A stretch of DNA of 64,000 nt from Axinella damicornis (lineage: Eukaryota; Porifera; Demospongiae; Axinellida; Axinellidae): the NCBI GenBank assembly GCA_963931865.1, contig OZ007513.1, positions 4,070,098-4,134,097 of the forward strand, given 5' to 3'. The translations under genes were made by a program, and so were the position numbers. A model generated the notes under the pieces. It did no database searches. It worked only from the letters and a program-made list of their open reading frames with translations, and was not told where the DNA came from. This document shows, piece by piece, positions 820 through 53,234 of the stretch. The first letter of the stretch is position 1. The number at the start of each line of letters is the position of its first letter.

Positions 820-1490
820 CTCGCCCTATATCCTCAGCTAGCCTTGTACCCTGGCCTATTGTACCCTGGCCTGTCTCCTCGGCTAGCATTGTACCCTGGC
901 CTGTCTCCTCGGCTAGCATTGTACCCTGGCCTGTCTCCTCGGCTAGCATTGTACCCTGGCCTGTCTCCTCGGCTAGCATTGTACCCTGGCCTGTCTCCTT
1001 GGCTAGCATTGTACCCCGGCCTGTCTCCTCGGCTAGCATTGTACCCTGGCCTGTCTCCTCGGCTAGCATTGTACCCTGGCCTGTCTCCTCGGCTAGCATT
1101 GTACCCTGGCCTGTCTCCTCGGCTAGCATTGTACCCTGGCCTGTCTCCTCGGCTAGCATTGTACCCCGGCCTGTCTCCTCGGCTAGCATTGTACCCCGGC
1201 CTGTCTCCTCGGCTAGCATTGTACCCTGGCCTGTCTCCTCGGCTAGCATTGTACCCTGGCCTGTCTCCTCGGCTAGCATTGTACCCTGGCCTGTCTCCTC
1301 GGCTAGCATTGTACCCTGGCCTGTCTCCTCGGCTAGCATTGTACCCTGGCCTGTCTCTTCGGCTAGCATTGTACCCTGGCCTAGCCTCATACCCTGGCCT
1401 ATATCCTCGGCTAGCTGTGTACCCTGGCCTATCCCATCAGCTAGCCTTGTACCCCGGCCTATCTCCTGAGCTAGCATCGTACTCGCCTAG
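820..1490. repeat. 30-bp minisatellite (about 20 copies)
   Basis: The unit is 30 bp, CTAGCATTGTACCCTGGCCT followed by GTCTCCTCGG. Core copies at about 861-1380 are nearly identical, varying mainly at CCT/CCC GGC, at one CTT and at one CTTC position. The edges at 820-860 and 1380-1490 are degenerate. Because 30 is a multiple of three, long open frames arise on both strands (plus-frame period LALYPGLSPR). I treat these as by-products of the repeat, since there is no supported start context or flanking coding sequence. Confidence 0.93.
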
Positions 1491-3412: not shown

Positions 3413-5289
<1,877 letters not shown>

Positions 5290-5797
5290 ACGAAGCACAC
5301 CAGACTGACACAGATAACGCTATTTTAAAATGTCATCTTTTCCATAAGTTTCTGCGTACTTAGAAATTTTCTGCACGTCCATGTATGATATGAATGTCCA
5401 CCAAAGTTGCTACATGTATTACGTTCCTAAAGATGTACATAAGGAACATTTTTGTTTATGTAATGCAAGAAACACCAGTGTGGTTGATGGTGATATACCT
5501 TAGTAATCACATTCTGTAGACCCATTTTGTGTTATTGTTCATGAAACTTGGCATAGTTACTGGAATGCTGAACCAAGACTCCATCCTCATCATCAGGACT
5601 CATACAAGTTGCGTCTTGCGTGGTTCCGGAAGTCCACAAATAGGATTATGGTCTCAACCCAGACACAGCTAGCCTCGATCATTCCTAGCCCAGCGTTTTG
5701 CTTGCAGTGCTACCCAGGCACTACACAAAGTTATCAGTGGCTGTATTACATTATTGTGTGTTGGCCTTCCCATCCTAACAGCAGTACAGGTACGTAC

Positions 5798-5894
5798 TTA
5801 GCCTCGTTCCCAGTCCCACGCCCAGCTTTTTGTCGCTTGCAGTACCGTACTGCAAGCGATGAGAAGCTGGGCGTGGGACTGGGAACGAGGCTAG
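5798..5894. mobile_element. Foldback MITE with near-perfect 45-bp arms
   Basis: TAGCCTCGTTCCCAGTCCCA is matched by TGGGACTGGGAACGAGGCTA. The arms continue inward through CGCCCAGCTTTTTGTCGCTT and AAGCGATGAGAAGCTGGGCG, with a short GCAGTACCGTACTGC palindrome at the centre. Confidence 0.85.
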
Positions 5895-6295
5895 TACATA
5901 CAGTATTGTGCACGTGCATGGGTGGTTCGAGTATAGAAACACTTTCAGTATATCTTTACAGAGAAAAGGAGAATTGCTCCCCAGGGACGAAGGAATGTAA
6001 TAATCAGCTGTTCCTCACCTATGAAAGTGCAGCTTATAATTTATTGCTGCATAATTTCCTTTAACCCGGCCTCTGATTTACAAATTTGTGGTTGATCGAG
6101 TTCAATATTATGTTTGCATATAATTATAGGCATTAAGGTTGTGATTTCAAAACGTGCTATGGCTTTTTAGCATCACAGATCTGCAATGCTATTTCTGCAA
6201 CGCTGTTTCTGTGAAGCTCTTTCTGTGACACTATTTCTGTGATGCTATTGCACAGCACTTAGAATCTTCCTGCAGCCAATAATACTATTGTGCTA

Positions 6296-6369
6296 CAGTA
6301 AAACCTATCAAACAGAGAGATTGAAGGAAAACTTGCATGTCAGAGTGTCCAATATAGGAGGTTTTACTG
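6296..6369. mobile_element. Short pogo/Tc1-like MITE
   Basis: A 74-bp element with inverted ends CAGTAAAACCT / AGGTTTTACTG flanked by TA on both sides, consistent with TA target duplication. Ends of this form are typical of pogo/Tigger-like elements (family knowledge). A related 199-bp element lies at 22193-22391. Confidence 0.7.
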
Positions 6370-6417
6370 TACATAATTATACAGTTCGAACATATTTTAT
6401 GCGCCAGCTGGGACTAC

Positions 6418-6486
6418 TGGTAGCCTCATTCCCAGGCTCCTCCCTAGCTTTTTGTACAGTATGCGACAAAAAGGAACGAGGCTAGA
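6418..6486. mobile_element. Degraded AGCCTCATTCCCAGGC MITE
   Basis: The left end TAGCCTCATTCCCAGGCTCC is intact. The right arm keeps only GACAAAAAGGAACGAGGCTA, lacking the GAGCCTGG part. Confidence 0.65.
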
Positions 6487-6501
6487 CTACTGGTACATTA
6501 A

Positions 6502-6729
6502 GGTAGCACATACCCCTTTACGTTAGGTTACCTTTAACTGCCGGGGGCCCCCAACGGTTAAAGGTAACCTAACGTAAAGGGGCCCCCGACGGTTAAAGGT
6601 AGCACATACCCCTTTACGTTAGGTTACCTTTAAGGTAGCACATACCCCTTTACGTTAGGTTACCTTTAACCGTCGGGGGGCCCCCGACGGTTAAAGGTAA
6701 CATAACGTAAAGGGGTATGTGCTACCTTA
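6502..6729. repeat. Nested palindromic repeat cluster
   Basis: The module GGTAGCACATACCCCTTTAC plus GTTAGGTTACCTTTAA occurs three times in direct and once in inverted orientation, separated by GGGGGCCCCC-type palindromes with ACGGTTAAAGG / CCTTTAACCGTC arms. This could form a large cruciform. It lies just upstream of the first visible exon of Ras gene 2. Confidence 0.85.
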
Positions 6730-6817
6730 AGGGAATGGCACACATGCATACTGAATTGAGGCAACAAACAATCACATGTACACCCTCTCCAATGCATCTC
6801 ACCCACTAACCATATAG

Positions 6818-8190
6818 CTGGAGGCACAGACAAGTCAGGCCTCGTAATGCAGCTCATCCAAAACCATTTTATTGACGAATATGACCCCACAATTGAAGAC
6901 ACCTATCGAAAACAGGTTTTGTGTGTAGAATATGCATGCTTGGTGTGATGTGTGGTTTCATATCATGCACTGTATTATAGCTTATAAAATAGCACCTGGT
7001 GTATATACCTGGTAGTCATGTGTATGCCGCATGCCACTGGTGATTAGCATTGCAAACTATGTTGGAGTCCAAACTGATATCACTTCAGATGATCAAGATA
7101 GCTAGCTATTCGATGGTATACAGCACTAATATATACCCTTGATGTCCTTACCAGGTGGTGATTGATGGGGAGACATGTCTACTCGATGTTATGGACACCG
7201 CAGGACAAGAGGAGTACTCGGCAATGAGAAACCAGTACATGAGAACAGGAGAAGGGTTCATGCTAGTGTTTTCAATTGACAACATGAAGTCATTTGAGGA
7301 CATTGAGTCATATGTGCAACAGATCCGAAGGGTGAAGGATGTAGAGGGTGTACCTATGATTTGTGAGTTAATTACAATGTCAGCATAATAGCTACATCTT
7401 GATTGATGATATCTATCTAGCTACTTGTGATATGGTTCTCGCAGCTGGAACCAGATCAACCCATCAACCCTCAGCTCAATTGCATGTGGTTAATGTGTTG
7501 TCACTCATTACCAACTGAATAACGTCTATAGCTAGCTACTAGCCCAGTGACTGTCCAACTATTAACGGTAGTGTGCCCATTATTTTAGGCCCTGTATGAA
7601 TTTGATCACATGCAGAACCAACTCTGCACTTACAAAATTGACCACTGAGTTCACTTGGTCTTATACTGTTGCAGAGCCAAATGAACCAGCCATTCTTGCT
7701 CCCTTCCAGTGGTTGGTAACAATGTTCATCTTCCTCGTCGTGAGGTCGACCAGAAGCTAGCTCAAGCATACGCCAAGAACCACCATATGCCGTACATCAA
7801 GACATCATCTAAGACAAGACAAGGTGTTGACGATGCGTTTTACACATTAGTGCGAGAAATTCGACATTGGGTAAGTGTGTATTCGTACATTGTTCAACTA
7901 TGTGACTATACAATGCTCACTGGCAGGGATGTTACACTGCACTACCTGAGTGGAGTGGGGAGGGGGTCTAGGTACGTACTTCAGACCATTAGATGTGTAG
8001 TATTTACCTGCCCATATGTAAAACAGATGGACAGTAACTGCGTGCATCAATGCTTGGCCCCTGAGCCGCCAAGCAACTCCAGCAATCATCTTTATTTTCT
8101 CTTGCACACCAACAGAAGGAGATTAAGAACGACGAAGACGAAGCAAACACCAAGAAGAAAGAGAACAAGCGAGGATGCATATTGTTCTGA
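6818..8190 (+). CDS. Ras paralogue with broken nucleotide-binding motifs (pseudo-GTPase)
   Basis: Tandem duplicate of the preceding Ras. Exons 6818-6915, 7155-7362, 7710-7870 and 8116-8190 match gene 1 in length and phase for the first three, with intact splice sites and no stop. The P-loop reads GGTDKS (V14T, G15D; K16 and S17 kept). NKID has become NNVH (K117N, D119H), and ETSAK has become KTSSK. Switch I (YDPTIED) and DTAGQEE are kept. The C-terminal lysine run is interrupted (KKKENKR) and the CAAX box is CILF. G15 and the NKxD residues are essential for guanine nucleotide binding in Ras, so normal cycling is unlikely. As in gene 1, no exon for codons 1-10 is visible. The product may be an expressed pseudo-GTPase, an alternative 3' half of gene 1, or a young pseudogene that has not yet gained stops. 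Confidence 0.8.
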
Positions 8191-8199
8191 ACGAAGCAC

Positions 8200-9050
8200 A
8201 CCAGACTGACACAGATAACTCTATTTTAAATGTCATCTTTTCTCTAGAAATTTTCTGCACACCATGCATAATGAATATCCACCAAAGTTGCTACATGTGT
8301 TACATTCCTAAAGTGTACATAGCTAAGTGTTTATGTAAAGCAAGAAACGCCAGTGTGGTTGATGGTGATATATTTTAGTGATCACATTTCTGTAGACTCA
8401 TTTGTGTTATTGTTCATGAAACTTGACATAGTTCCTGGAATGCCGAATCAAGACTCCAGAAGGACTGACAAGCCTCGATCATACAAGTTACATGCATGGT
8501 TCCGGAAGTGAGTAAATAGGATCGAGACACTAGCTACAATATTATAGCTAGCCTTGATCATTCCTAGCCCAGGCTTCAGTGCAGTGCTGCATGCAAAAGC
8601 TGGATGGGACCCAGGATTATTGTGCCGGTACAAGATTCCACAACTGCATGCATTGTCTTCCATAATTCATGAACTACTTGGACCCTCCCTTTATGTACCT
8701 CACTCACTCATTTACTGGGTGAGTCCAGAGGTCCACCAAAAGTAGTTCATGAGCTGAAGCGGATCAGGAAATGGCAGTAGATACAACTACCTACACCTGC
8801 ATGCATATGGCACTTTGTTTGGCATAATTATGTGCACAATAAACTGTACCATGCTTTGGAGGACATGTATAGAAGACATTGCAGGAAATTGTTGTTTTGA
8901 AAATTGCACATGCATTTGTTGAAACTGTTTTCAAAGGATTGCACATGGCTATATAGGTAGTTGCCAGTTGACAAAAGCAAACCAAAGCATCTCATGGTAT
9001 ACCATCAACCATTACCAACTATAGCTACTTGAACTATAGAATCCACATGG
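8200..9050. other. Duplicated Ras 3' flank, then no gene recognised
   Basis: The first about 300 bases resemble the 3' flank of Ras gene 1 (5290-5600): CACACCAGACTGACACAGAT, then GTTGCTACATGT and GCCAGTGTGGTTGATGGTGA. The duplication therefore extended well past the stop codon. After about 8550 nothing recognisable is present. Confidence 0.6.
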
Positions 9051-12322: not shown

Positions 12323-13813
12323 TCACAAGCATGTGCCATTTAAACTTTTGAGCCGATTCTTAACAGAAATTATTTCTGTCTGAAATCCATTGTCATTTGC
12401 AATGTGCAGTGCTGATTCTGCACATTGGACTGCATGCTCCACATCCCCTTCATTCCTGTATACATCAGACTGTGTGAACAGATGTATGCACTTTGACCTT
12501 GGTGGCAGGGCATCGAAGTCAACTGATGCTAGAGTGCTTTTTGCGCTTGCAATTCTCTCACGATCAAAAATGTTACCAGGTTGGAACATAGACGAACCCA
12601 AGCATGCCTGAGCCAGTCGAATTTTAGGGTGCGAGAGTTCCAACCCATAATCGTCAAGGCAAGCATTTGTAATTGCCTGCTGAAATGCAGTTGTTGCCAT
12701 CTTTGCTGTGCGGGTATCAAATCTCATTGCAAGGAATGCCAGCTGGATGTTACCATAGCAGTACAGAGTGAGTGCTTTATCTTCGCCACCCTCAAGAGTG
12801 AACTGGATTGCTAGTGCGTTTTGTATGTGTTCCAAAGCTTTCGTGTTGTTATTCATGTACAGATAGAGTCTTGCTAGAGCCCAATCACATCTTCCCTCGA
12901 GGGCAGTCGAATTGTTGCTGCCTATCTCCTGACACATCTCCCTTGCCTTTTCAACACAACTGAAGACTTTGTCCACCTGTCGGCGAGTGATCCACCCAGT
13001 GCAGCTCTCAAGAAGAATTGCTGTACGAACATCAATACTGTATTGGGTCTTTGATGTAATACACTCATCTACCAACACGTCAGCTTCATCCCACTTGCCA
13101 TCAAGGTGGAGACGGCGCAGTCTTCGAACTTTTTCTAGATAAGCTGCTGTTTTAAATTTAACCTGCACATGCTGTTTTGAAATGAGATGTGGTACTGGGG
13201 CGGAGAAGTTCGGCAAACATCCAACAGTTATTTTCTCAAACAGTTCCACGTGTGTTGGATGGGTGGTTTCGTTCCTCAAACACCGAGCAAAGCGGTAATG
13301 AGCTGTGGGTCCTTTTGTGTCAAGCCAACCGAGCAGATTCAATATCTTATTATAGCGAGATTCATTAACGTTCAGGAGCAGATGGAATTCGCTATCTGTG
13401 AGTAGCTCTTCTCGTCTCAGATATGGGACTATAGCATTAACATCCAGATCTTTCATACTGTCGGTCATTTCGATCATGCGTTCTTTTATTGTACAAGAAA
13501 CACTTAGGACATCGTCCGAGGCGACGGTGCACTCTCGCAGCAACGCCGCGAGGTAGCTGTGGCCCAAATGTTCCCTATTATCTTCAAGGCACTGTATGAA
13601 CAGACAAAAGCCACTCGGTTTCTTGTCGAGCAGCGAAAGGAGGCGCTTGGCCTTCTCCTCTTTGGTAACCGAGTCGTTTAGCAAGAATTCACCGTCAGGA
13701 AAGGCCAAGACGCGGTGCTTTATCAGGTGCGGTAAAATCTCTGGACCTCTAAGACATGCGGAAATCTCATCGATACATTCGCGTGTCCTTGCTGCTAAGG
13801 TTTGGTCGTCCAT
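12323..13813 (-). CDS. CARD-CARD-TPR-like protein 1 (496 aa)
   Basis: A single uninterrupted ORF from ATG to TGA. Residues about 13-95 fit a CARD-type death fold (helical pattern with LPHLIKHRVL, KAKRLLSLLDKK, FIQCLEDN). Residues about 108-195 form a second such domain (IVPYLRREELL, NKILNLLGWLDTKG, FARCL). The rest (about 225-490) is helical with TPR-like repeats (ALEHIQNALAIQ, CIHLFTQSDVYRNEGDVEHA). CARDs pair with other CARDs in apoptosis and innate immune complexes, so an adaptor or scaffold role is plausible but not shown. No enzyme motif is visible. A close paralogue lies at 24916-26643 on the same strand. This copy is shorter at the C-terminus, stopping soon after SLNG where the paralogue continues for about 80 residues. 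Confidence 0.85.
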   Translation of the reverse strand: MDDQTLAARTRECIDEISACLRGPEILPHLIKHRVLAFPDGEFLLNDSVTKEEKAKRLLSLLDKKPSGFCLFIQCLEDNREHLGHSYLAALLRECTVASDDVLSVSCTIKERMIEMTDSMKDLDVNAIVPYLRREELLTDSEFHLLLNVNESRYNKILNLLGWLDTKGPTAHYRFARCLRNETTHPTHVELFEKITVGCLPNFSAPVPHLISKQHVQVKFKTAAYLEKVRRLRRLHLDGKWDEADVLVDECITSKTQYSIDVRTAILLESCTGWITRRQVDKVFSCVEKAREMCQEIGSNNSTALEGRCDWALARLYLYMNNNTKALEHIQNALAIQFTLEGGEDKALTLYCYGNIQLAFLAMRFDTRTAKMATTAFQQAITNACLDDYGLELSHPKIRLAQACLGSSMFQPGNIFDRERIASAKSTLASVDFDALPPRSKCIHLFTQSDVYRNEGDVEHAVQCAESALHIANDNGFQTEIISVKNRLKSLNGTCL

Positions 13814-14039
13814 AGTAGTGCCGCCATCATAGTCTGTATTACTGATACATTAATGTGATCTTGGATTTTAGCAGACATCCAGCTTTTCCTCGTATATATA
13901 AGAAGGCATTGAGCTCTGAGGTCTACAACTGCATTCCGCAAATCCTTTTAGCACGCCGCAAGCATGTCGGTTTGTCACCACGGATTCAGTTATGATTGCG
14001 CGTGTTTTGATCAGAGCTGCAATATTCAAATCTATGGGT

Positions 14040-18910: not shown

Positions 18911-21874
18911 ATGAGTAACCAATCAGTGTTGAAGCGGTTGAAGCAGGAGGCACACCGGCGTTTGCAAGAAGAGTATCATGAATATCACCTTGGAAGTCCT
19001 ATGTGTAACTGTACATGCTGTATTGAAGATCTATGGTGTGACGATGACTTCGGACAGCGTACGTGTATTGATAGCTGTCTCCTTTGCTGTTGTTGCGGTA
19101 ATATACTTTATGTGGCTATGGATGACTGTTACGAACAGGCACAAAACAACCGACGGGTACGACAGCTGGCTCGAATACAACTACACCAACGAGAACAGGT
19201 TCAAGCTGACTACACACAGGCACTGGAGTCAGGGGAAGTTCTGGTGGCATATGGTCGAATAATGATGGTTGGCCCAGGTGGAGTTGGCAAAAGTAGTCTA
19301 CTTCGAGGCCTCATGAAATTGCCCCTCCAAAGTGCTGAAAGTACAATTCTTGCAGATACCTCCAAGGTGAAGTACCTGTGGGCAAGGACTGGGGCTCATC
19401 CCAGTAGCTACTGGTCTAATGTCACTGAAAGTGATGAAATTGAAGAAGTTGCCTCGCTCTGCACAACTGTACTTCGACGCAGTCCACATCGACATGGTGG
19501 CGGTAGTGGTAGTGGTAGTTCTACTGTCATTACCACACAACCAGCAGCTTCTGCTGTTGCAGTCTTTGCTCCAGAAGGTGTCAGCGCTGATCGCTTTTCA
19601 TCTGTCACTTCGGAATACAAGAAGCTAATAACAGAAACGGAAGAGTACGTGGTTGACACATTTCTCCTACCATCATTACGACGTGTGGAACATGGTCAGG
19701 TAAGGACCAAAACTCCCGAATCAGAAGTGAGGCTACACATTTGGGACTGTGGGGGACAACCAGTTTTCCTTGACGTTCTTCCAGCTTTCATGACATCCAG
19801 GACACTGTTCATGCTCTTCTTTGACGCTAGCAAGAATCTGCAAGGTAAATGCAAGACGGTAATCAACAAACAGGGTCGCACAGTGCTTTCAAAGGAGCAG
19901 AATGTCACCCAGGTGGACCTGATGCTCCAGTGGATGGCCTCAATTCATGCCACACTCACTGATGAAACCACCGATGGAATAATTCCAAAGTGTCCTCGTA
20001 TCATCCCGATTGGTACCCATGGAGATGACCCAACAGTTGCTGGCAAACAAAAGGAAATCTTGGCAGATCTAACTTCCCATTTCGCAGGAAAGGCATTTGC
20101 ATCCTTGCTATGGAATGGTGTGGTTGTTGATAACACAACGGCTGGTCGATACATTACTGAAGACCCAGCATATGAATACATCCGAACAGAAGTACGTGAG
20201 TATGTGAAATCAAGCCTCACTGTTCGTACCCCAGTCGTGTGGGTGTTATTCAGGAAGATCCTTCAGAAAATAGCGGAAGGAAATCCTGTTCTTTCCTACG
20301 CGCAGGCAGCTGTTGTAGGCAACATCTGTGGCATAGCACCTCGTGTTGTTCCAAGTGTTCTCAACTTCTACCACGAGCTTGGTGTTGTTCTCTACTATGC
20401 TTTCATTGATAGCCTCAACAACCACATCATTGCCGATCCTCAATGGCTGATTCAGCAGCTAGGCAAACTACTGGCACTGGAAGGCCTTGAATGTGTCCCT
20501 GGCAACCAACTTATGTGGAACCTACTACGAGAGAAAGGTATCCTTGTCCAGCACCTCTATGAGCTTGTATGGGAGAATAGCGAGGTAAAGCCGGAGGGTC
20601 TTATGAATCTCCTGGAGCATTTTCTCCTTGCTGCTCCCATCAACACCCAGTCCCAAATCCACACGTTTCGAGGTCGAGAGTACTTCGTTCCATGCATGTT
20701 GGGATTCTACTCAAGGGATGACAGCTGCCACCAATCAAATCCAAGTGTGAAGGATGCTTCCCCTCTGCACTTGCTTTTCAACACGCAGTACGTCCCTCCT
20801 GGCTTTTTCACGAGGCTTGCAACAGCTATGACAAAGGATTCACACTGCCGTTTAGTCTTTCGGCAAGGTATTTTTCGAAACCAAATCACAGTGTCCTATG
20901 GGGATGGGGAAAAAATTGATGAGATCACAATCACCGAGCATACCTCAAGTATTGAGATTAGTGTGGCTCGTATCGCACCCCGAAAGGTACACCACCTAAC
21001 GTTCCAGAATGCTTGCCAAGAAATCTTGAAATTGCTTCTGAGCTGCTCATCTGATGTTTGCCAGTGGCTGATCTCCATTAAAGTCAGTACTGCTTTCAAA
21101 TGTGATCATTGCAGCCAGACAAATACTCCCAAGCAGTTCATCCCGATTCCTCCAAGTGCTACAACACGTTCCACTTTGCAGTGTGATAAATGTGGATGTC
21201 ATGATGCGACACCCAAACAGCAGTGCTGGCTCAAGATTCATCCACTACCACAAGAACCTGATCAACTTTGTTTTGCTGAGTTGCAAGGAGTGGCCCAACG
21301 TATCATGTCCTCAGGAAAGCTTAAGGAGATTGCAGATGCCCTTGAACTACTTCCACAGCTCCAATCAGTTGAGAGTGAGCCCAATCCAGCGTTCACTCTT
21401 CTACAGCGCTGGTCCCGTCATGGCGGTCAAGTTCGTTCCACCCTGGTCCATTATCTTCGACAGATAGGATTAAGGGCAACAGCTGACAATGTTGAGTATC
21501 AAGAGTTACACTCAGTAGCTGGTTCTCCAGCATTCAACCCTGAGCGGGTGAATTCAAAGCGAGAGTCAGCAGAGTGTCGCACCTTTCGTAAGTGTTTTAG
21601 TTTCCTAGCAGATGGGATATCGGATCCCGGGCATATGGCAGTTCAACTTTACTCGAAGGAGCTAATTGGAGCAGACCTGCGGACAGAAGCCCTGAAGCCA
21701 GCCGTTGAAGAGCAAGTGAAGATTGGGAAGCTCCTGTCAGCAGTGGAAGATCAAATTGTATCTAGTCCGGCCACCAAGTTCAGACAATTTATAGACATTC
21801 TACGAAACGAACCATCCCTTCAGCACCTGGCAACGAAGCTAGAGAGTACTTGCCGTGAGATGTCAGACAGCTAA
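18911..21874 (+). CDS. Roc-COR GTPase with death domain and CARD-like C-terminus (987 aa)
   Basis: A ROCO-type signalling protein, one uninterrupted exon. The start is supported by an in-frame TAA 10 codons upstream with no other ATG between; an acceptor-like TTACTTACAG at 18801-18810 suggests a 5' UTR exon. Residues 30-75 are strikingly cysteine-rich (CNCTCC, CLLCCCCG). The Roc domain has GPGGVGKS at 121-128, DCGGQ at 279-283 and THGD at 369-372 in the place of NKxD, as is usual in Roc domains. A low-complexity G/S insert lies at about 197-205. The COR-like region runs from about 430 to 600 (IADPQWLIQQL). A CxxC pair lies at 731-734 and 758-761. Residues about 790-868 fit a death domain (LLQRWSRHGG, HYLRQIGLRATADNV) and about 890-985 a CARD-like domain (QLYSKELIGADL, KIGKLLSAVEDQI). 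It probably assembles with other death-fold proteins in a GTP-dependent way; this is inference. DAPK1 is a known Roc-COR-DD protein, but no kinase domain is present here. Confidence 0.88.
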   Translation: MSNQSVLKRLKQEAHRRLQEEYHEYHLGSPMCNCTCCIEDLWCDDDFGQRTCIDSCLLCCCCGNILYVAMDDCYEQAQNNRRVRQLARIQLHQREQVQADYTQALESGEVLVAYGRIMMVGPGGVGKSSLLRGLMKLPLQSAESTILADTSKVKYLWARTGAHPSSYWSNVTESDEIEEVASLCTTVLRRSPHRHGGGSGSGSSTVITTQPAASAVAVFAPEGVSADRFSSVTSEYKKLITETEEYVVDTFLLPSLRRVEHGQVRTKTPESEVRLHIWDCGGQPVFLDVLPAFMTSRTLFMLFFDASKNLQGKCKTVINKQGRTVLSKEQNVTQVDLMLQWMASIHATLTDETTDGIIPKCPRIIPIGTHGDDPTVAGKQKEILADLTSHFAGKAFASLLWNGVVVDNTTAGRYITEDPAYEYIRTEVREYVKSSLTVRTPVVWVLFRKILQKIAEGNPVLSYAQAAVVGNICGIAPRVVPSVLNFYHELGVVLYYAFIDSLNNHIIADPQWLIQQLGKLLALEGLECVPGNQLMWNLLREKGILVQHLYELVWENSEVKPEGLMNLLEHFLLAAPINTQSQIHTFRGREYFVPCMLGFYSRDDSCHQSNPSVKDASPLHLLFNTQYVPPGFFTRLATAMTKDSHCRLVFRQGIFRNQITVSYGDGEKIDEITITEHTSSIEISVARIAPRKVHHLTFQNACQEILKLLLSCSSDVCQWLISIKVSTAFKCDHCSQTNTPKQFIPIPPSATTRSTLQCDKCGCHDATPKQQCWLKIHPLPQEPDQLCFAELQGVAQRIMSSGKLKEIADALELLPQLQSVESEPNPAFTLLQRWSRHGGQVRSTLVHYLRQIGLRATADNVEYQELHSVAGSPAFNPERVNSKRESAECRTFRKCFSFLADGISDPGHMAVQLYSKELIGADLRTEALKPAVEEQVKIGKLLSAVEDQIVSSPATKFRQFIDILRNEPSLQHLATKLESTCREMSDS

Positions 21875-22192: not shown

Positions 22193-22391
22193 CAGTCAAA
22201 CCTCCGAACAAAGGACACTTTGGGAACAATATAAATTCTCCATTGTAGAGAGGTTGTCCTCTTCTCGGAGGTTCAATATGTATTAGAACCATAGGCAAAC
22301 CAATTATTTGGACCTTGAAAAGCGTCCTTTGCAGAGAGGTTTATTATATTGTGTCCCTATCTCGGAGGGTCCACTATCGGAGGTTTGACTG
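22193..22391. mobile_element. pogo/Tigger-like MITE (199 bp)
   Basis: Inverted ends CAGTCAAACCTCCGA and TCGGAGGTTTGACTG flanked by TA. The inner sequence contains AGAGAGGTTGTCCTCTTCTC and AGAGAGGTTTATTA, typical of decayed internal repeats. It shares end type with 6296-6369. Confidence 0.85.
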
Positions 22392-24915: not shown

Positions 24916-26643
24916 CTACAAGAGGTACTTCACCTTTGTCCGATATTTAGCAGCTCTAGACATCCTAACTGTTTTCAGGTAACGTGCATGTATTGGGTTC
25001 GACCGTGCCTTCTTTTTATAACTGCCTACACGATGAGCAACATATCTTCGGTTCTGTTGAGTAAGAAAGTGAGAACGTGTGGTGGCACTAAGACTCAAGC
25101 CCAATGTGTGAGACAGGGTATGTCCATGTATGAGAGCATCTACACGTTCATGATCATTAGCTGGCCCATGTAAACATTTGAGCCGATTCTGGACAGAAAT
25201 TAGTTCTGTCTGGAACCCATTGTCAGTCGCAATGTGCAGTGCTGATTCTGCACATTGGACTGCACTCTCCACGTCCCCTTCATTCCTGTATACATCAGAC
25301 TGTGTGAACAGATATATGCACTTTGACCTTGGTGCCAGTGTCTCAATGTTAACGTCGGCTAGAGCACACTTTGCACTTGCAATGCTCTCACGATCAACAG
25401 CGTTACCAGACTTGAATGGAGATGAACCCAAACATGCCTGAGCCAGTCGAATTTTAGGGTGGGAGAGATCTAACCCATAATCGTCAAGACTAGCATTTGT
25501 AATTGCCTGCTGTAGTGCAGTTCTTGCCACACCTGCTTTCTTGGTATCTGATTTCATTGCATGTAAAGCCAACTGGATGCTACCATAGCAGTATAAGGTG
25601 AGTGCTCTATCTTCACCATCCTCAACAAATAACTGGATCTCTATTGCTTTTCGTATGTGTTCCAATGCTTTTTCGTTGTTGTTCATGTAACGGTAGAGTT
25701 TTGCTAGAGCCCAATCACATCTTCCCTCGAGGGCAGTTGAATTGTTGCTGCCTATCTCCTGACACATCTCCCTTGCCTTTTCAACACAACTGAAGACTTT
25801 TCCCACCTGTCGTCGAGTGATCCACCCAGTGCAGCTCTCAAGAAGAATTGCCGTACGAACGTCAATACTGTATGTAATACACTCATCTACCAACAGGTCA
25901 GCTTCATCCCACTTGCCATCAAGGTGGAGACGACGCAATTTTTTAATTGTATCCAAATAAGCTGCTGTTTTTAATTTGTCCTCCACAGGCACCTTTGAAA
26001 TGAGAGGTGGTACTGAGTCAGGCTTGTCGAAGAATTGTGGTGAAAGTCCAGTGGTTATTTTATCAAACAGTTCCTTGCGTGTAGGGTGGTCGGTTTCGCC
26101 CCTCAAACAGCAAGCAAAGAGATAATAAGCTGTGGGTCCTTTTGTGTCAAGCCAACTGAGCAGATTCAATATCTTATTATGGCGAGATTCATTAACGTTT
26201 AGGAGCAGATGGAATTCACTCTCTGTGAGTAGTTCTTCTCGTCTCAGAAATGGGACTATAGCATCAATGTCCAGATCTTTCATACTGTCGGCCATTTCGA
26301 CCATACGTTCTTTTACTGTAGAAGAAGCACTTAGGACATCGTCTGAGGCGAATGTGCTCTCTCGTAGCAATACCGAGAGGTAGCGGTGGCCCAAATGTTG
26401 CTCATCATCTTGAAGGCACTGTATAAACAAACAAAAGCCATTCGGTTTATTGTCCAGTATCGAAAGGAGGCGCTTGCCCTTCTCCTCTTTTGTAACGGAG
26501 TCGTTCAGCAAGAATTCACCATCATCACGACATACCAAGACACGGTGCTTTATCAGGTGCGGTAAAATCTCTGGACCATTAATGAAAGTAGAAATCTCAT
26601 CCAGACACTCGTGCGTCCTGGCTGCTTCGTTTTGGTCGCTCAT
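24916..26643 (-). CDS. CARD-CARD-TPR-like protein 2 (575 aa)
   Basis: Paralogue of the 12323-13813 protein, also a single ORF on the minus strand and co-linear over almost its entire length. CARD-like domain 1 is at about 13-95 (LPHLIKHRVL, GKRLLSILDNK). Domain 2 is at about 108-195 (IVPFLRREELL, NKILNLLSWLDTKG). TPR-like helices follow (ALEHIRKAIEIQ, CIYLFTQSDVYRNEGDVESA). It differs by a four-residue deletion in the CITSKTQYSIDV region of copy 1, here CITYSIDV, and by a basic C-terminal extension of about 80 residues rich in K/R (YKKKARS, RAAKYRTKVK) with no recognised domain. Whether the extension is real coding sequence or read-through past an ancestral stop is unsettled. The likely role is CARD-mediated adaptor or scaffold, by inference. 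Confidence 0.85.
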   Translation of the reverse strand: MSDQNEAARTHECLDEISTFINGPEILPHLIKHRVLVCRDDGEFLLNDSVTKEEKGKRLLSILDNKPNGFCLFIQCLQDDEQHLGHRYLSVLLRESTFASDDVLSASSTVKERMVEMADSMKDLDIDAIVPFLRREELLTESEFHLLLNVNESRHNKILNLLSWLDTKGPTAYYLFACCLRGETDHPTRKELFDKITTGLSPQFFDKPDSVPPLISKVPVEDKLKTAAYLDTIKKLRRLHLDGKWDEADLLVDECITYSIDVRTAILLESCTGWITRRQVGKVFSCVEKAREMCQEIGSNNSTALEGRCDWALAKLYRYMNNNEKALEHIRKAIEIQLFVEDGEDRALTLYCYGSIQLALHAMKSDTKKAGVARTALQQAITNASLDDYGLDLSHPKIRLAQACLGSSPFKSGNAVDRESIASAKCALADVNIETLAPRSKCIYLFTQSDVYRNEGDVESAVQCAESALHIATDNGFQTELISVQNRLKCLHGPANDHERVDALIHGHTLSHTLGLSLSATTRSHFLTQQNRRYVAHRVGSYKKKARSNPIHARYLKTVRMSRAAKYRTKVKYLL

Positions 26644-26699
26644 AGCAGTACCGCACTACTACTACTTCATGTACTACCACTAAATTACGTTTTGTCAAT

Positions 26700-27260
26700 C
26701 ATCGATGAATCCTATTGTACTTGGCTTCAATTGTGCCGAAAGTACTATGTAGGCTCTCTCACACCATGGATAATAGAGCATATTATCCATGCTCACACGC
26801 GCCCTCCCCCGTCCTTCCGATTTCTGTTCGCGTGTGGGAAAGAGCCTGGAAACGAAACTACGCACAATCAGCCACTGAATTCCGCATAATATATTGTATG
26901 TAGGGTAGCCGCCCCTATTATGAGACACGAAGCCATTTGTTCAATTAAGTTAACCAACAAGCTATCAACAGGATGTGATTGTACTGTACTATCGTAAGCG
27001 ATCAATATTCGGACACCATGGACACCCGTTCAGGCGTCTGGATACAGTTATCAACTCCGAAGCCATTCCGTGTGGGGGTCTGGCCCCGCGAGACTACTCC
27101 TAGGGTGCAACAACACTTCAAGAGGAGAGCCCCTCCCTTCGAGTTAGATAGATTCTACAGCTGATTAAACGTATGGCGTCTGAAACAACCAATGATCGGA
27201 CAAAATTTATACATCATCGGACGGCTGTTCAAACGGCATAATATGGGTCACAATCCGAGA
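26700..27260. other. Intergenic; one small ORF of unknown status
   Basis: The sequence carries GGAAAGAGCCTGGAAACGAA (a decayed MITE end). A 48-codon ORF from the ATG at 27018 to 27164 (starting MDTRSGVWIQL, ending FELDRFYS) has an unusually protein-like composition but no domain I recognise and no detectable neighbour exon. Listed as unknown and not called as a gene. Confidence 0.3.
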
Positions 27261-27263
27261 TGG

Positions 27264-27358
27264 TCTCGGTCCCAGACCCACCAGCCCAGCGCGAATCTCA
27301 CGCGCGGGGGGAAAGCGATCCGCGCTTGGGGTTGGTTTTGGTCTGGGACCGAGACGCA
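27264..27358. mobile_element. Foldback MITE with GGTCTCGGTCCCAGACCC ends
   Basis: GGTCTCGGTCCCAGACCCAC pairs with TTGGTCTGGGACCGAGAC. Inner arms carry CGCGAATCTCACGCGC and GCGATCCGCGCTTGGGG. Related copies are at 32218-32326 and 47972-48048. Confidence 0.75.
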
Positions 27359-27510
27359 CCAGAAACGGAATTGCGTAGATGAAGTTTGATTGTGGTAAAG
27401 ATACATGACATATATATAGTGACATAGCCTAGGTGTAGTACTTCTTGGTATATGCCCAATTATACAATAGCCCATACTATAGTTTTGCAGTGGCGTCCGA
27501 ATTTGAAGAT

Positions 27511-27543
27511 GGGTGTTGCGAAGGTGTGGCCGTACTAAGTTGT
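27511..27543 (+). promoter_or_regulatory. Conserved start-region motif, gene A
   Basis: GGGTGTTGCGAAGGTGTG followed by CGTACTAAGTTGT, ending five bases before the ATG of gene A. The same motif occurs upstream of the paralogue at 35560-35592. It probably marks the transcription start or 5' UTR of both genes. Confidence 0.55.
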
Positions 27544-27547
27544 AGAT

Positions 27548-30500
27548 ATGGCCAGCCAGACAGCTCCAGTTACTGCGGAAGGTCAAACAGCAAATGATTC
27601 TGATCGCATCTCCAGCTTTTACTGCCTCCTGGAAAACGGCGAAAGTTGTGCTCCCGGCGATGGCTTTATAATCGATTTAGATCGGCTTTGCGAGTTGACA
27701 TCGTTGTTACCTGCACTGCATTGGCAAGAACGAAGAAGAGTAGGAGAGCTCCAGACAAATTATGCCCTCGTCACTTGCCATAGCACCTTTCCTGGTTTGT
27801 CTCCTGACTCACCTCACCTTCCCCCTGACTCGGAAATTTCTTCACTGAATGGTTGGACAATTTCGTGTCCAGCCATCGAGAACGGTGACAAGCAAAACTT
27901 AAGAAGCCTTGTTTGTGGGGTGATTTCCTGCTGTGGTCCTGAAAGCTTGTTCTCACGTGTAGTCGGAGGGGAAACTGCCGGGAAGGCAGTTCAAGAGGCC
28001 CGAGCATTAATACCACACCCAAGCAATGCACAGATTTGCGAAATTGGACTCAACATCACGATCCTCTTCCATAATAAAAGATTCGAGGAACTACTCAGAA
28101 CCGCTCATTCCACACACAGTCCCCCACTCAGTCCCCCAGTGGTGCCTGTCCTGAAGTACCTGGATCATAATGCGTGTAGGACAGAACTTGACCAGATCAT
28201 CTGTGAAGCCAACTGTGAAAAAGAGCAACAGTCAGAATGCAGTTCTACACCACTCCATGTTTATTATCGCAATGAAGCAGGAGGCTGCCCACGAACCACA
28301 GCAGTCTCTAGGATTGAATACGAACGCATTCCACATGTACAACCTTCCACAAAACATGCACTCAGCCATGAAATGAGCATGTATGAGAAATTTCAGAAGC
28401 TGACTTACCATGCAGGCAGCTCTGCAATCGGGGTCTTGGGAAAATACTTTGGTTCACCACTGGTGTACTACAATCACAGTACCAAAGAACTCACTGTAAT
28501 TGGGGTGCACGCTGGGTTTGTGCAGGGAAGAAATGTTGCCGTCACATTTTATGGAATCCTGCACCTTCTTCAAGGTTTGTCATCATATTCAGCATCCATT
28601 TCTTGCATGGTTTGTTGGTTGAAACATTTGATACATTGAATTCGAACATTCTCGGGTAAAAATCAAAATCATTAATTTTTCTCCCAATTGTTTTATGATA
28701 TCTAGGTGGACCTGCACCTGTGCTGTCAGTCCTCAGACTTTTCAAATCTCCAAGACTCTGGCCTTCAAGATGGGTTTACCTCCTCATTCCACATCTAGGT
28801 TAGAACTACATGCGAGCAGGCGTGTGTAAAGTATGCATTAGCAAGTTAACATGAACTGACATCTTTACCTTTGACAATTTTGATGCCTCGGTTAATTGAA
28901 GCAAATAATGGATGCATTAGCTATACCTTAAGATTAGCGAAGTGGATATTGGTCCGGCAGGAAGCAGGGCAATGGGTTAGGGTATATTAGGGCCAGGGCC
29001 GGTTCTAGATGCGCACGCGTTTCTGGTATCTATACCTAAAGTATGTATTTCCTGCTGGACCAATATCCACGTCGTAAGATTAAAGGTGCATGACGTTTAG
29101 TGGATCGCGAGCATATAGCAGATTTGATGGTACTAGAAACTATTCTATTACCAATTCTCATCAAGTGGCAACTGCACTGCTAGCACTGGTAGCAAGGCTA
29201 GTGCAACAGCTAGGTAGGCCAAACGTACTTCACTGTCAAAGACCAGGCTAGGATTGTTATAACTGAGCTTGGTTAGGTACCTCAGTTGCAATTAGAAAGC
29301 ACACCAAAGCAAATATACAAGTACCTGCTTTTAGGAGATACTTTGTTAACAAGCATTGGGACATTTGGCGACAAAACAAGTGGACCCTTTATGACCAGCA
29401 TTCAAGTGGCCTCTTATGCATTAATGTTTGATAACAAACAGACACTTGTAAGGGCACTTTGATAGCAAGCAGATAGGCAATTAATGATAGCAAGCAGGCA
29501 CATTGTATGCAGATTGTGAGTTATAAGGGACACTTTAGTAACAAGCAGGTACGAAGGAGTAGCAGATCACTCTTGAGCTGCATGGGAGAGCATTTATAGA
29601 ATGCATGCTTTCCAATTGTAACTGGAACTGGGTTAACCAAGCTCAACCCTGCTCATTTTACAGTGTGTCAGAATGGCACCTCAGGTCATACTCTCACCTC
29701 GTGCATCCACACTGCATACTATACAGCTAGCCTCATTCCCAGGCTGGATTGTCAGAGTGGCACCTCAGGTCATACTCTCACCTCACGCATCCACACTGCA
29801 TACTATACAGCTAGCCTCATTCCCAGGCTGCATTGTCAGAGTGGCACCTCAGGTCATACTCTCACCTTGCGCATCCACACTGCATACTATACAGCTAGCC
29901 TCGTTCCCAGGCTGCATTGTCAGAGTGGCACCTCAGGTCATAATCTCACCTCGCGCATCCACACTGCATACTATACAGCTAGCCTCATTCCCAGGCTGCA
30001 TTGTCAGAATGGCACCTCAGGTCATACTCTCACCTTGTGCATCCACACTGCATACTATACAGCTAGCCTCATTCCCAGGCTGCATTGTCAGAGTGGCACC
30101 TCAGGTCATACTCTCACCTCGTGCATCCACACTGCATACTATACAGCTAGCCTCATTCCCAGGTTGCATTGTCAGAATGGCACCTCAGGTCATAATCTCA
30201 CCTCGTGCATCCACACTGCATATACTATACAGCTAGCCTCATTCCCAGGCTGCATTGTCGTGTAGGCTGTAGGTTAATGTGCACTTTACTTAGAGACTAA
30301 AGGTATAACCTATCTGAGAGGAAGCTGACCCAGATCATCTTGCATGTGGTTACTGACGACTGAACAGTGTTTGTGTGTACAGTCCCAGCACTATCCTGAA
30401 AATGTGGTTTGGGGTTGTCATGGCAACATCACCAGTAACGTCACCAGGTGGAAAGCTACACCAGCTGCCATCAATTACATGAAATTCAATCATACTTGTA

Positions 30501-50324: not shown

Positions 50325-53234
50325 TAGACTATACAAAATTCTATTTACCTCAATCCTCTTGTGAAACTTGTGCAGCGTATTGAAACCCTTGAAAGTGACA
50401 TGCTGGCCAAATATGCTGACACCTTCACTGGTCTGGGATGCATCACTGGGGTCACTCATCATATTAAGCTCGACCCACACCACAAGCCTGTGGTTCACGC
50501 ACCCCGTAAAGTCCCAGTCACCATACGATCGAAGGTGAAAGAAGAGCTGGAACGGATGGAACGCCTGGATGTCATAGAACGTATCCAAGAACCCACCGAC
50601 TGGGTCAATTCGATGGTGAATGTCGTTAAACCCAATGGCAAGCTCCGCATCTGCATCGACCCACGTGATCTCAACAAAGCTATCAAACGGGAGTTCTACC
50701 CAATGAAAACCGTGGAAGAAGTAGCAGCTCGGATGCCTAATGCCAAATTGTTCTCAAAATTGGACGCCAGCTCCGGGTTCTGGCAGGTGAAACTCGACCA
50801 CGAAAGTGCCAAGCTTTGCACCTTCAATACCCCTTTTGGGCGCTACATGTTCAAACGGCTACCATTTGGCATCTCCTCAGCCCAAGATGTTTTCCAAGCC
50901 ATCATGACAGAGATGTTCGAAGACATCGATGGTGTGGAAGTTGTGGTGGACGACGTGATAGTATGGGGGACCACTGAGGAGGAGCACGACAAACGGCTCA
51001 AGAAAGTCCTTCAGCGTGCTCAGGAGCGAAACCTGAAGCTGAACAAAGACAAAAGCCAAATCAAAAAGAAGCACATCAGTTACATCGGTCACGTCATAGG
51101 CGAAGATGGTGTCAGGCCTGACCCCAAAAAGGTCACTGCTGTCGTAGAGATGAAAACACCAGCCTGCAAGGACGAGCTTCAGCGCTTTCTAGGCATGACC
51201 ACTTACCTCTCAAAGTTCATTGAGAACTACTCAAAGATGTCTGCACCACTCCGAGTGCTTCTTGAAAAAGACACCGAGTGGCACTGGACTGATAGGCAAG
51301 ATGCGGCAATCCAGCAGCTGAAAACTGCTGTCACAATTGCACCCGTGCTGAAGTTTTTCGACCCCAGCCAGCCGACTACGATATCCGTTGATGCAAGCTC
51401 AAAGGGAATGGGTGCCGTCCTACTTCAAAATCAGTCCCCTATCGCCTACGCCTCCAAATCGCTCACAGCAACTCAACAAAACTATGCCCAAATCGAAAAA
51501 GAAATGCTGGCAATCGTTTTTGGCTGTCAAAAATTCCATGACTACGTATATGGACTGCCGAATGTGGACATTGAAACCGACCACAAACCACTTGAAACCA
51601 TCCTACGAAAGCCCTTACATGCTGCACCAGCCCGCCTGCAGCGCATGATGATGTCCATTCAGAAGTATCCGATCAGTGTCACGTTTAAGCCCGGGAAAGA
51701 GCTCCTAATTGCTGATACCCTTTCCAGGGCATCATTGCCTGACGTTGCTGATGAACTAGAGTTTAGACAGTATGACATCAACATACTGCACACTCTACCG
51801 ATCACTGAGCCAAAACTGGAGGAGTTCAAAGAACAGACCAAGAAGGATGCAAGGCTCCAAGAGTTGGTGCACACTGTCCAAGGTGGGTGGCCAGAACACA
51901 AAGCCAACTCACTACCTGGAGCAAGACCATTCTGGAATTTCCGTGACGAACTCACATATCACGAAGGCATCCTCTTCAAAGGTGCAAGAGTCATAGTGCC
52001 TACTTGCATGCGTCCAGAAATGTTACGGCTCATCCACGGCTCACACCTGGGAGTGGACAAGTGCAAACGTCGAGCACGGGACGTCCTCTACTGGCCAGGC
52101 ATGGCTGCCCAGATCGAAGACACAGTCTCCAACTGCTCAACTTGTGCTATGTACCAGCGAAACAACCCTAAACAACCACTTCTGCCGCATCCAGCACCCT
52201 CAAGACCCTGGGAGAGAGTAGGTGCTGACCTTTGTGAGCTAGGTGGGAAGCACTATCTCATCCTGGTGGACTATTACTCCAATTTTATCGAGGTTGACCA
52301 CCTGAAAGAGACCACAAGTCTACAGGTCATCGAACGCCTCAAGCCTCATTTCGCTCGACATGGTATACCGGACATTCTCATCACAGACAATGGCCCGCAG
52401 TTCTCCAGTGACACGTTTCACAAATTCTCGGCAGACTACCAGTTTCAGCATCACACCAGCAGCCCCCACTACCCTCGCTCCAACGGAAAGGCCGAGAAAT
52501 CAGTCCAGACTGTGAAGAACCTTTTACGTAAGGCACAAGCCGAGAACAGTGACTTTCACTTGGCACTGCTGGACTTTCGCAACTCGCCCACTACTGATGA
52601 TGTGGGATCCCCCGCACAGCGCCTGATGGGCCGGCGGACCAAAACTCTCCTCCCGACTGCCGAGAAACTTTTACTTCCCAAAACTATTCCCCCCACAATT
52701 GTCAAATCGGAGCACCTCCGACAACAAGAGACCCAAAAGCACTTCTACGATAAGACCTCTAAACCACTTTCTCCTCTGAAGCCAGGCGATCGTGTTCGTT
52801 ACAGGAGCGGAAAATTGTGGCTACCAGCAGTGATCGTCGAGATCTCTGAGCACCCAAGGTCTTACACGATCCAAACCCCTCAAGGACAAACGTACCGTCG
52901 TAACAGGGTACATCTCAAGCCTGATGCCCCATTCGGGAATGACACTGACGATGAAGATGATCCTCACAGCGATGAAGAGAGAGGAGACAATGCAAGCGAT
53001 CCTGGCAGGGAAGTTGTTGAGTCCGCAACCAGCGCACCCGATACAGCCACTACATCCAGTGCCCCCACTGAACTGCGTCGATCAAAGCGAACCACCCGAG
53101 GCCTTACAGTTATGCCGACCCCTATACCCTCAAGTTTTGAAGAAGGGGGATGTGACAATGTTCATAGCATTATCAATCACAAAACTATTATCATCATAAT
53201 CATAATAATTCACACATTACATCATGATGATTAG
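50325..53234 (+). pseudogene. 5'-truncated Ty3/gypsy pol (RT-RNase H-integrase), ORF intact
   Basis: Long open frame of about 957 residues without a supported ATG. The frame is open from just after a TAG at 50325, and gag and protease are absent. In order: reverse transcriptase (LDASSGFWQV, then VVVDDVIVWG with the catalytic DD), RNase H (ISVDASSKGMGAVL, ETDHKPL), integrase with an HHCC zinc finger (HGSHLG, CSTCAMY), and a DDE core (LVDYYS, ITDNGPQFS, KAEKSV). A C-terminal GDRVRYR-type module and an acidic tail follow. No frameshift or stop is visible in 2.9 kb, so the copy is recent. Its 5' end abuts the MITE at 49684-50273. It is annotated as a broken mobile-element gene. Confidence 0.93.

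What the first reader, a model, noticed from the sequence alone, without database searches (positions are those of the whole stretch)
6818..8190. Tandem Ras duplicate with three nucleotide-binding motifs altered but effector loop kept
Next to an intact Ras gene, the duplicate has GGTDKS (G15D, V14T), NNVH for NKID and KTSSK for ETSAK. YDPTIED, DTAGQEE, splice sites, reading frame and a CAAX box remain. Changes that hit only the guanine-binding residues, with no stop or frameshift, are what one expects of a pseudo-GTPase that can still engage effectors or regulators and be membrane-anchored. By contrast, a neutral pseudogene should also collect stops and splice-site losses.
Basis: partly seen in the sequence, partly recalled or inferred. 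Interest (0 to 1): 0.75.

Follow-up and report, generated by a model that had tools for sequence, protein, structure and literature searches.

The report
Nucleotide-dead Ras duplicate inside Ras locus
In a sponge genome, a second copy of most of the Ras gene, altered where Ras grips GTP yet kept in reading frame, sits just behind the normal copy with no first exon of its own that could be found, so one Ras locus may make both the normal switch and a switch-dead partner; whether it is expressed is not known.

Summary
Exons 6818-6915, 7155-7362, 7710-7870 and 8116-8190 encode an unbroken Ras body with GGTDKS, NNVH and KTSSK, unchanged YDPTIED and DTAGQEEY, and a CILF end. (1) No first exon was found for this copy; MTEYKLVVVG of the intact gene lies 2.2 kb before the window. 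(2) The donor after exon 2' is weak (CAG|GTTTTG). (3) Changes are not confined to guanine-binding residues: of 25 assigned to the copy, 7 fall in 14 G1/G4/G5 codons, none in 20 switch codons. Divergence is old in exons 2-3 (dS 0.85-1.0), younger in exons 4-5 and 3' flank (0.1-0.3). No stop, no frameshift, one 6-bp in-frame insertion; a neutral phase giving 25 changes predicts about 12 frameshifts. Best reading: a maintained pseudo-Ras, made by splicing the shared first exon to a duplicated block of exons 2-5. Main rival: a copy without first exon that lost function recently; exons 4-5 alone look near neutral by count. No transcript data. No protein with these motifs among the 120 best listed hits of either of two searches. 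New variant of a known kind (pseudoGTPase; exon duplication as in KRAS4A/4B).

The parts
3477..3574 (+). Intact copy A, exon 2 ([11 protein letters not shown]...[12 protein letters not shown]). Its exon 1 (MTEYKLVVVG + first base of codon 11, then donor GTGAGT), proposed first exon of both products, lies outside the window: 31 bases from G000:C9:4067849, which is 2249 bases before window base 1
   Evidence: exon 2; exon 1: (one of two exact genome-wide matches to the pattern, the other on contig C4)
3748..3955 (+). Copy A, exon 3 ([12 protein letters not shown])
4427..4587 (+). Copy A, exon 4 (NKID, ETSAK)
5221..5289 (+). Copy A, exon 5 (polybasic tail, CKLF, stop)
5290..5711 (+). Copy A 3' flank that is similar to copy B 8191-8588 (right edge of the duplication)
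   Evidence: 80% over 5150-5711 vs 8044-8588
6297..6371 (+). Short element with inverted ends (AGTAAAACCT...AGGTTTTACT); a second diverged copy of its right end at 22369
6498..6733 (.). Palindromic repeat element with many copies in the genome, directly upstream of exon 2'
   Evidence: 125 matches listed, all but five of them to this element
6818..6915 (+). Duplicate B, exon 2' ([11 protein letters not shown]...[12 protein letters not shown]); acceptor ..CACTAACCATATAG|CT, phase 1; weak donor CAG|GTTTTG
7155..7362 (+). Duplicate B, exon 3' ([12 protein letters not shown] kept; I55V, L56M, D69N, L79M, C80L, A83S, R97V, G98Q, A106V, D108G, I109V)
7710..7870 (+). Duplicate B, exon 4' (NNVH, KTSSK)
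8116..8190 (+). Duplicate B, exon 5' (6-bp in-frame insertion, CILF, stop)
8838..8843 (+). First AATAAA/ATTAAA downstream of the stop of copy A; lies beyond the right edge of the duplication, so it may serve both copies
   Evidence: weak: 6% of same-length window stretches also lack one

Best explanation
A block of the Ras gene from intron 1 to the 3'UTR (exons 2-5) was duplicated in tandem inside the gene. The second block never had, or lost, a first exon, and is read by splicing the common first exon (MTEYKLVVVG + G|) to exon 2' instead of exon 2, in the same phase. The product is a full-length Ras-fold protein (190 residues) with a lipid-anchor motif whose phosphate- and guanine-binding residues are altered (G15D, K117N, D119H, A146S), so it should bind GDP/GTP badly or not at all. 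The frame and the rest of the fold are kept by selection. Most likely action: a membrane-anchored, nucleotide-poor decoy that lowers Ras signalling, by holding a Ras exchange factor (as laboratory G15A and S17N Ras do; recalled) or by joining Ras clusters as a silent partner. Shown: exon structure, phase match, altered motifs, frame kept; no own first exon found. Inferred: the splicing, the selection on the protein today, nucleotide loss, the decoy role.
For: Phase-1 acceptor of exon 2' matches the donor of the exon 1 of copy A. No first-exon candidate between the copies: no ATG frame with a phase-1 GT[AG]AG/GTATG donor; best MTEYKLVVVG-like peptide scores 12 against 49 for the true one, and 28 of 35 control stretches do as well. 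dN 0.094, dS 0.607 (NG86). With d=0.25 on the duplicate's branch, neutrality predicts 69 changed codons and 4.7 stops; 25 and 0 seen. To give only 25 changes neutrally the branch must be about 0.067 long, which predicts 11.9 frameshifts from the indel rate of the 3' flank (P 7e-6; 0.02 with a third of that rate). In codons 12-20, 14 of 27 bases differ yet 5 of 9 residues are kept (P 0.005), so the P-loop was probably translated for long. G1/G4/G5 7 of 14 changed, switches 0 of 20 (P 6e-4; with wider switch limits 2 of 31, P 0.002; 3 of 36, P 0.003). In exon 4', 4 of the 5 changes assigned to B fall in 7 of 54 motif codons (P 5e-4). KRAS4A/4B shows that tandem exon duplicates in a Ras gene can be spliced as alternatives (PMC9882654, passages).
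Against: No transcript. Donor of exon 2' is poor. A 9-kb splice that skips exons 2-5 of A is needed. In exons 4-5, 7 changes against 8.9 expected if neutral at d=0.055, and the frameshift test there alone is weak (P 0.014; 0.24 with a third of the indel rate). The lack of stops alone is weak (P 0.16 at d=0.08; P 0.036 for random placement of all 83 differences). Gene conversion may have kept the 3' half intact. Switches 0 of 20 against the rest of the protein gives only P 0.08, and 4 of 9 invariant nucleotide residues against 21 of 168 others only P 0.024. No protein with these motifs among the 120 best listed of 3700 and of 1351 hits. Synonymous changes could not be split between branches. 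D69N is remembered as a change that weakens exchange-factor binding (recalled; searches gave no paper on it), which speaks against the exchange-factor trap.
Confidence: 0.45

Rival explanations
1. A partial duplicate without first exon that was useful (or kept similar by conversion) for a time and is now a pseudogene. The motif changes are early signs of decay and no protein is made.
For: No own exon 1 and no coding first-exon candidate found; weak exon 2' donor; repeat elements just upstream; exons 4-5 carry 7 changes against 8.9 expected under neutrality at d=0.055; changes at four residues (G15, K117, D119, A146) that are the same in all 116 aligned Ras proteins.
Against: No stop or frameshift in the four exons while the 3' flank (374 aligned positions) shows 16 indels between the copies; changes cluster in nucleotide motifs; the one indel is in frame.
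Confidence: 0.35
2. An independent gene with its own promoter and an unrecognised first exon, perhaps from the repeat-rich stretch upstream or translated from Met21, giving a Ras-like protein without a normal first strand.
For: I21M creates an ATG in frame; codons 12-21 differ at 15 of 30 bases while 22-43 differ at 11 of 66, as if the first codons were freer.
Against: Residues of codons 12-20 are kept beyond chance (P 0.005), so they were probably translated; no phase-1 first exon with a common donor found; a Ras fold without its first strand is not expected to be stable (recalled).
Confidence: 0.08
3. The duplicated block serves the intact gene as a store of alternative exons: all introns match in position and phase, so for example exon 4 of A could join exon 5' to give Ras with a CILF tail, as KRAS4A/4B exchange tails. 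The altered G1/G4/G5 residues would then never meet in one protein.
For: Identical intron positions and phases in both blocks; exon 5' and its flank are the least diverged part.
Against: Long constraint on exons 2' and 3' (18 changes against 42 expected at d=0.2) is then unexplained; changes in exon 4' would be harmful in a chimera.
Confidence: 0.08
4. Assembly or sequencing artefact, or the other allele of Ras.
For: Only one assembly was seen.
Against: 83 substitutions in 531 aligned coding bases, introns 1-3 that align only by force, and a single place in the genome for each copy.
Confidence: 0.01

Closest known systems
Classical Ras (HRAS/KRAS/NRAS and sponge Ras, e.g. Halichondria panicea GTPase HRas, P0004)
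   Same: Sequence family, switch I and II cores, length, CAAX-type end; copy A and P0004 differ at one place in residues 1-111 (read)
   Different: G15, K117, D119, A146, the same in 116 of 116 aligned Ras proteins (taken from the 120 best hits), are changed here; no own first exon found
PseudoGTPases of class i (p190RhoGAP pG1/pG2, CENP-M, fungal dynein light intermediate chain; PMC5593906, passages read)
   Same: GTPase fold with G motifs lost, presumed loss of nucleotide binding
   Different: Those listed there are far more diverged from Ras or domains of larger proteins (partly recalled); this one is a stand-alone tandem copy, 149 of 177 codons of exons 2-5 coding the same residue as Ras beside it, with both switch cores and a lipid-anchor motif; nucleotide loss is not measured
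KRAS4A/KRAS4B alternative exons (PMC9882654, a preprint, passages read)
   Same: Tandemly placed related exons of a Ras gene, phase-compatible, mutually exclusive use possible
   Different: There a single last coding exon has two versions and the G domain stays functional; here the whole block of exons 2-5 is doubled and the second G domain is altered; use is unproven
Laboratory dominant-negative Ras (G15A, S17N, D119N; recalled)
   Same: G15 and D119 are among the residues changed
   Different: Natural, several sites at once, plus D69N, which is remembered to weaken exchange-factor binding

Membership tests
Ras GTPase (H/K/N-Ras type) | G1 GxxxxGKS/T | tested here: not met
   GAGGTDKS, G15D (the first GA comes from the shared exon 1); G in 116 of 116 aligned
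Ras GTPase (H/K/N-Ras type) | G2 T35 with YDPTIED, and G3 DxxG (DTAGQE) | tested here: met
   unchanged
Ras GTPase (H/K/N-Ras type) | G4 NKxD and G5 SAK | tested here: not met
   NNVH and SSK
Ras GTPase (H/K/N-Ras type) | C-terminal CAAX-type anchor | tested here: met
   CILF-stop; prenylation itself not testable
[quoted passage not shown]
   three of five motifs altered; Pfam Ras E 3.7e-51
PseudoGTPase (class i) | Protein made and not binding GDP/GTP | not testable with these tools
   no transcript or binding data
Unprocessed pseudogene | Stops, frameshifts or lost splice dinucleotides | tested here: not met
   none in 4 exons; one weak donor
Unprocessed pseudogene | Missing promoter/first exon | tested here: inconclusive
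   no own first exon found, but a shared one is phase-compatible
Processed (retro) pseudogene | Introns absent | tested here: not met
   three introns kept at the same places
Mutually exclusive tandem exons (KRAS4A/4B type) | Phase-compatible duplicated exons in one transcription unit | tested here: inconclusive
   phases match; one unit inferred from exon 1 and the poly(A) signal position only

The most novel reading that the evidence does not exclude
One animal Ras locus makes, from one promoter and one first exon, both the Ras switch and its own nucleotide-dead antagonist, by choosing between two complete sets of exons 2-5. The ratio would be set by splicing, giving a built-in brake on Ras.
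Probability: 0.3. Interest if true: 0.8.

Novelty: new variant of a known kind. Interest (0 to 1): 0.5.

Why it matters
Ras is among the most constrained proteins of animals (recalled), and a natural stand-alone copy that keeps both switch cores and the membrane-anchor motif but loses the nucleotide-binding motifs was not met in the searches made here (for proteins; 18, 26 and 41 for papers, listings only apart from the passages named). If expressed, it would be a natural counterpart of laboratory dominant-negative Ras, in a sponge, and would show how a switch can be turned into a regulator while its outer face is kept. It also gives a direct test of whether an intragenic duplication can supply an antagonist of its own gene.

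Tried and rejected
Artefact or allele: rejected (83 of 531 coding differences, introns that align only by force, one place each in the genome). Retrocopy: rejected (introns kept). Decayed first exon near 6312: the stretch before the start codon of copy A has a 20-of-24 match at 6312-6331 (E 0.53) and the exon 1 region with flanks scores 29 there, above all 48 control stretches (max 26), but the coding part of exon 1 does not match (17; 19 of 48 controls do as well), and the stretch lies in an element with inverted ends whose right end has a diverged second copy at 22369; I treat it as a repeat, not as an old exon, but do not exclude it. Poly(A) argument: no AATAAA/ATTAAA for 3.5 kb after the stop of A, but 6% of window stretches of that length lack one, 36% lack one over the 1.5 kb up to exon 2', and 10% of 1-kb stretches lack all eight hexamers tried; kept as weak support only. 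Structure prediction was not used: the spliced protein is not a letter-for-letter reading of the DNA, and such a model would show a Ras fold whatever the pocket residues. Papers on D69N and on dominant-negative Ras: no useful hit (listings only). Passages of PMC11316025 and PMC13236570 name other atypical or pseudo-GTPases (RHOBTB, RhoH, Rnd) and gave nothing closer. Review PMC7544640 is not held. Solved structures by sequence gave Ras chains only among the 60 shown of 302, not used further. No donor-site statistics for this genome were made; the weakness of CAG|GTTTTG is judged by the general consensus (recalled). YN00 gave no value; LWL85 failed for exon 2 and for its first ten codons. Dropped rows: 4 of 120 proteins (P0001, P0006, P0037, P0059: fused, truncated or synthetic) before the counts; of its 8 'sponge' rows only P0004, P0005 and P0011 carry a sponge name, the other 5 are unnamed and taken as sponge by similarity, and P0008 was left out of the eight as near-identical to P0007. 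Two codons (the 6-bp insertion) of the duplicate were left out of the codon alignment.

Full report
What is there. The window is G000:C9:4070098-4134097 of a 226-Mb assembly in 120 contigs. Two joined pieces of the cox1 on contig C120 are 91-94% identical to the six best hits; the one of these six that bears a name is a Demospongiae cluster. I therefore take the source to be a demosponge. The intact Ras, copy A, has exons at 3477-3574, 3748-3955, 4427-4587 and 5221-5289 and its first exon, ATG...GGAG|GTGAGT, 2.2 kb outside the window at C9:4067849.

What was missed. Copy B begins at an acceptor and no first exon was found for it. A plus-strand scan for EYKLVVVG-like peptides (up to 3 substitutions) in the 10 kb upstream and the first 10 kb of the window gave the exon of copy A and three unconvincing matches, none of them in 5290-6817; a stricter scan of both strands of the window gave none in 5290-6817; an exact genome-wide pattern found two places, this one and one on C4; no ATG frame with a phase-1 donor of the types GT[AG]AG or GTATG lies in 5290-6800. 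The space between the copies holds a palindromic repeat with many copies in the genome and a smaller element with inverted ends. The donor after exon 2' is CAG|GTTTTG. Similarity between the copies ends on the right at 5711/8588 and could not be followed upstream of exon 2 except through repeats. The first AATAAA/ATTAAA after the stop of A is at 8838, beyond that edge. The simplest reading is an internal duplication running from intron 1 into the 3'UTR, which leaves B between A's first exon and a shared poly(A) signal. A full duplication with later loss of exon 1 is not excluded.

Age and gene conversion. Exons 2-3 differ at 62 of 300 bases (dS 0.85-1.02) and exons 4-5 at 21 of 231 (dS 0.20-0.28) (Fisher P 0.0003). 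Introns 2 and 3 align only by force (p about 0.27 with 62 gaps), whereas the 3' flank differs at 39 of 374 positions (JC 0.11) with 16 gaps. So the 3' half looks younger, probably by conversion; if so, the NNVH and KTSSK changes arose after that, the P-loop changes possibly earlier, and the nucleotide site was hit in two blocks of different age.

Selection. Of 28 amino-acid differences in 177 codons, 25 are assigned to B, 2 to A and 1 is open, using 116 Ras proteins from the 120 best hits, 8 of them sponge or sponge-like. G15, K117, D119 and A146 are the same in all 116. Pairwise dN/dS: 0.094/0.607 (NG86), 0.086/0.486 (LWL85), 0.096/0.495 (ML). A neutral branch of d=0.25 would give 69 changed codons and 4.7 stops, with none of 1000 runs at 25 or fewer changes; d=0.08 fits the count (P 0.32), d=0.10 hardly (P 0.011). 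A neutral phase just long enough (0.067) should still have brought about 12 frameshifts at the indel rate of the 3' flank (16 indels to 39 substitutions, 13 of 16 not a multiple of three), P 7e-6, or 0.02 if the rate is three times lower. In codons 12-20, 5 of 9 residues survive 14 base changes, P 0.005, Ser17 among them through AGT to TCA. This argues that the P-loop was translated, hence joined to a first exon, for a long time.

Results against this. In exons 4-5 alone, 7 changes were seen and 8.9 expected under neutrality at d=0.055; the frameshift test there gives 0.014, or 0.24 at a third of the indel rate. Absence of stops is weak by itself (P 0.16 at d=0.08). Equal synonymous rates on both branches are assumed. 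The motif tests are partly post hoc: G1/G4/G5 7 of 14 against switches 0 of 20 gives P 6e-4, wider switch limits (2 of 31, 3 of 36) P 0.002-0.003, switches against all else P 0.08, the nine strictest residues against the rest P 0.024. No protein with these motifs is among the 120 best listed of 3700 and of 1351 hits; of the 239 different proteins listed, none holds DKS near its start, NNVH or TSSK, and 238 hold GKS/GKT. None of the ten hits that I read out is copy A itself, so this species seems thinly covered there, and the absence says little about expression. The case rests on one genome.

Mechanism. From established Ras work (recalled), changes at G15 and D119 lower nucleotide affinity strongly, and such mutants can block Ras by holding exchange factors. 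Copy B keeps both switch cores, so contact with exchange factors is possible, but D69N, V29I and S39T lie in or near that face and D69N is remembered as weakening it. Raf-type effectors need the GTP shape and are less likely partners. A second option is joining Ras at the membrane through the helix 4-5 face (recalled); in codons 120-142 and 147-179 no change is assigned to B, though this block is young. The polybasic tail KKKKKK became KKKENK and the end CILF.

Compared with what is known. [quoted passage not shown] its class i (no nucleotide) needs an assay. PMC9882654 (preprint, passages) describes KRAS4A/4B as tandem exons spliced as alternatives; here the doubled block is four exons and the second G domain is changed. 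Searches for pseudoGTPases with Ras, with evolution of the superfamily, and with Porifera and tandem duplication (listings and abstract starts only, apart from the passages named) showed no such case; that is a limited library.

Verdict.

Noticed in passing
window 12323-13849 (-) and 24919-26643 (-): Two long open frames that combine a CARD (caspase recruitment) match with TPR matches, the latter partly below Pfam's cut-offs; probably members of one family near the Ras locus.
   Followed up: partly
window 18911-21871 (+): Open frame of 987 aa with COR-A and Roc matches (Roc E 6e-10, only positions 48-91 of 119 of the profile), so a Roc-COR protein whose G domain may be incomplete at its start in this frame.
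   Followed up: no
window 858-1382: 30-bp minisatellite, 17.5 copies at 98% match, open in several frames.
   Followed up: no
window 50361-53231 (+): Reverse transcriptase, RNase H and integrase domains in one frame: a retroelement.
   Followed up: no
window 56023-57013 and 57495-58386: Tandem arrays with units of 482 bp (2.0 copies, 96% match) and 291 bp (3.1 copies, 95%).
   Followed up: no
G000:C120 (41,168 bases), 24924-30292: Probably the mitochondrial contig; cox1 matches come in three pieces separated by about 2.7 and 1.3 kb, and the frame of the second piece runs on into a stretch that looks like an intron-encoded LAGLIDADG-type protein (motif recalled).
   Followed up: partly
window 3477-5711 and 6818-8588: Divergence between the copies falls sharply from exons 2-3 to exons 4-5 and the 3' flank, as expected after gene conversion of the 3' half.
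   Followed up: yes
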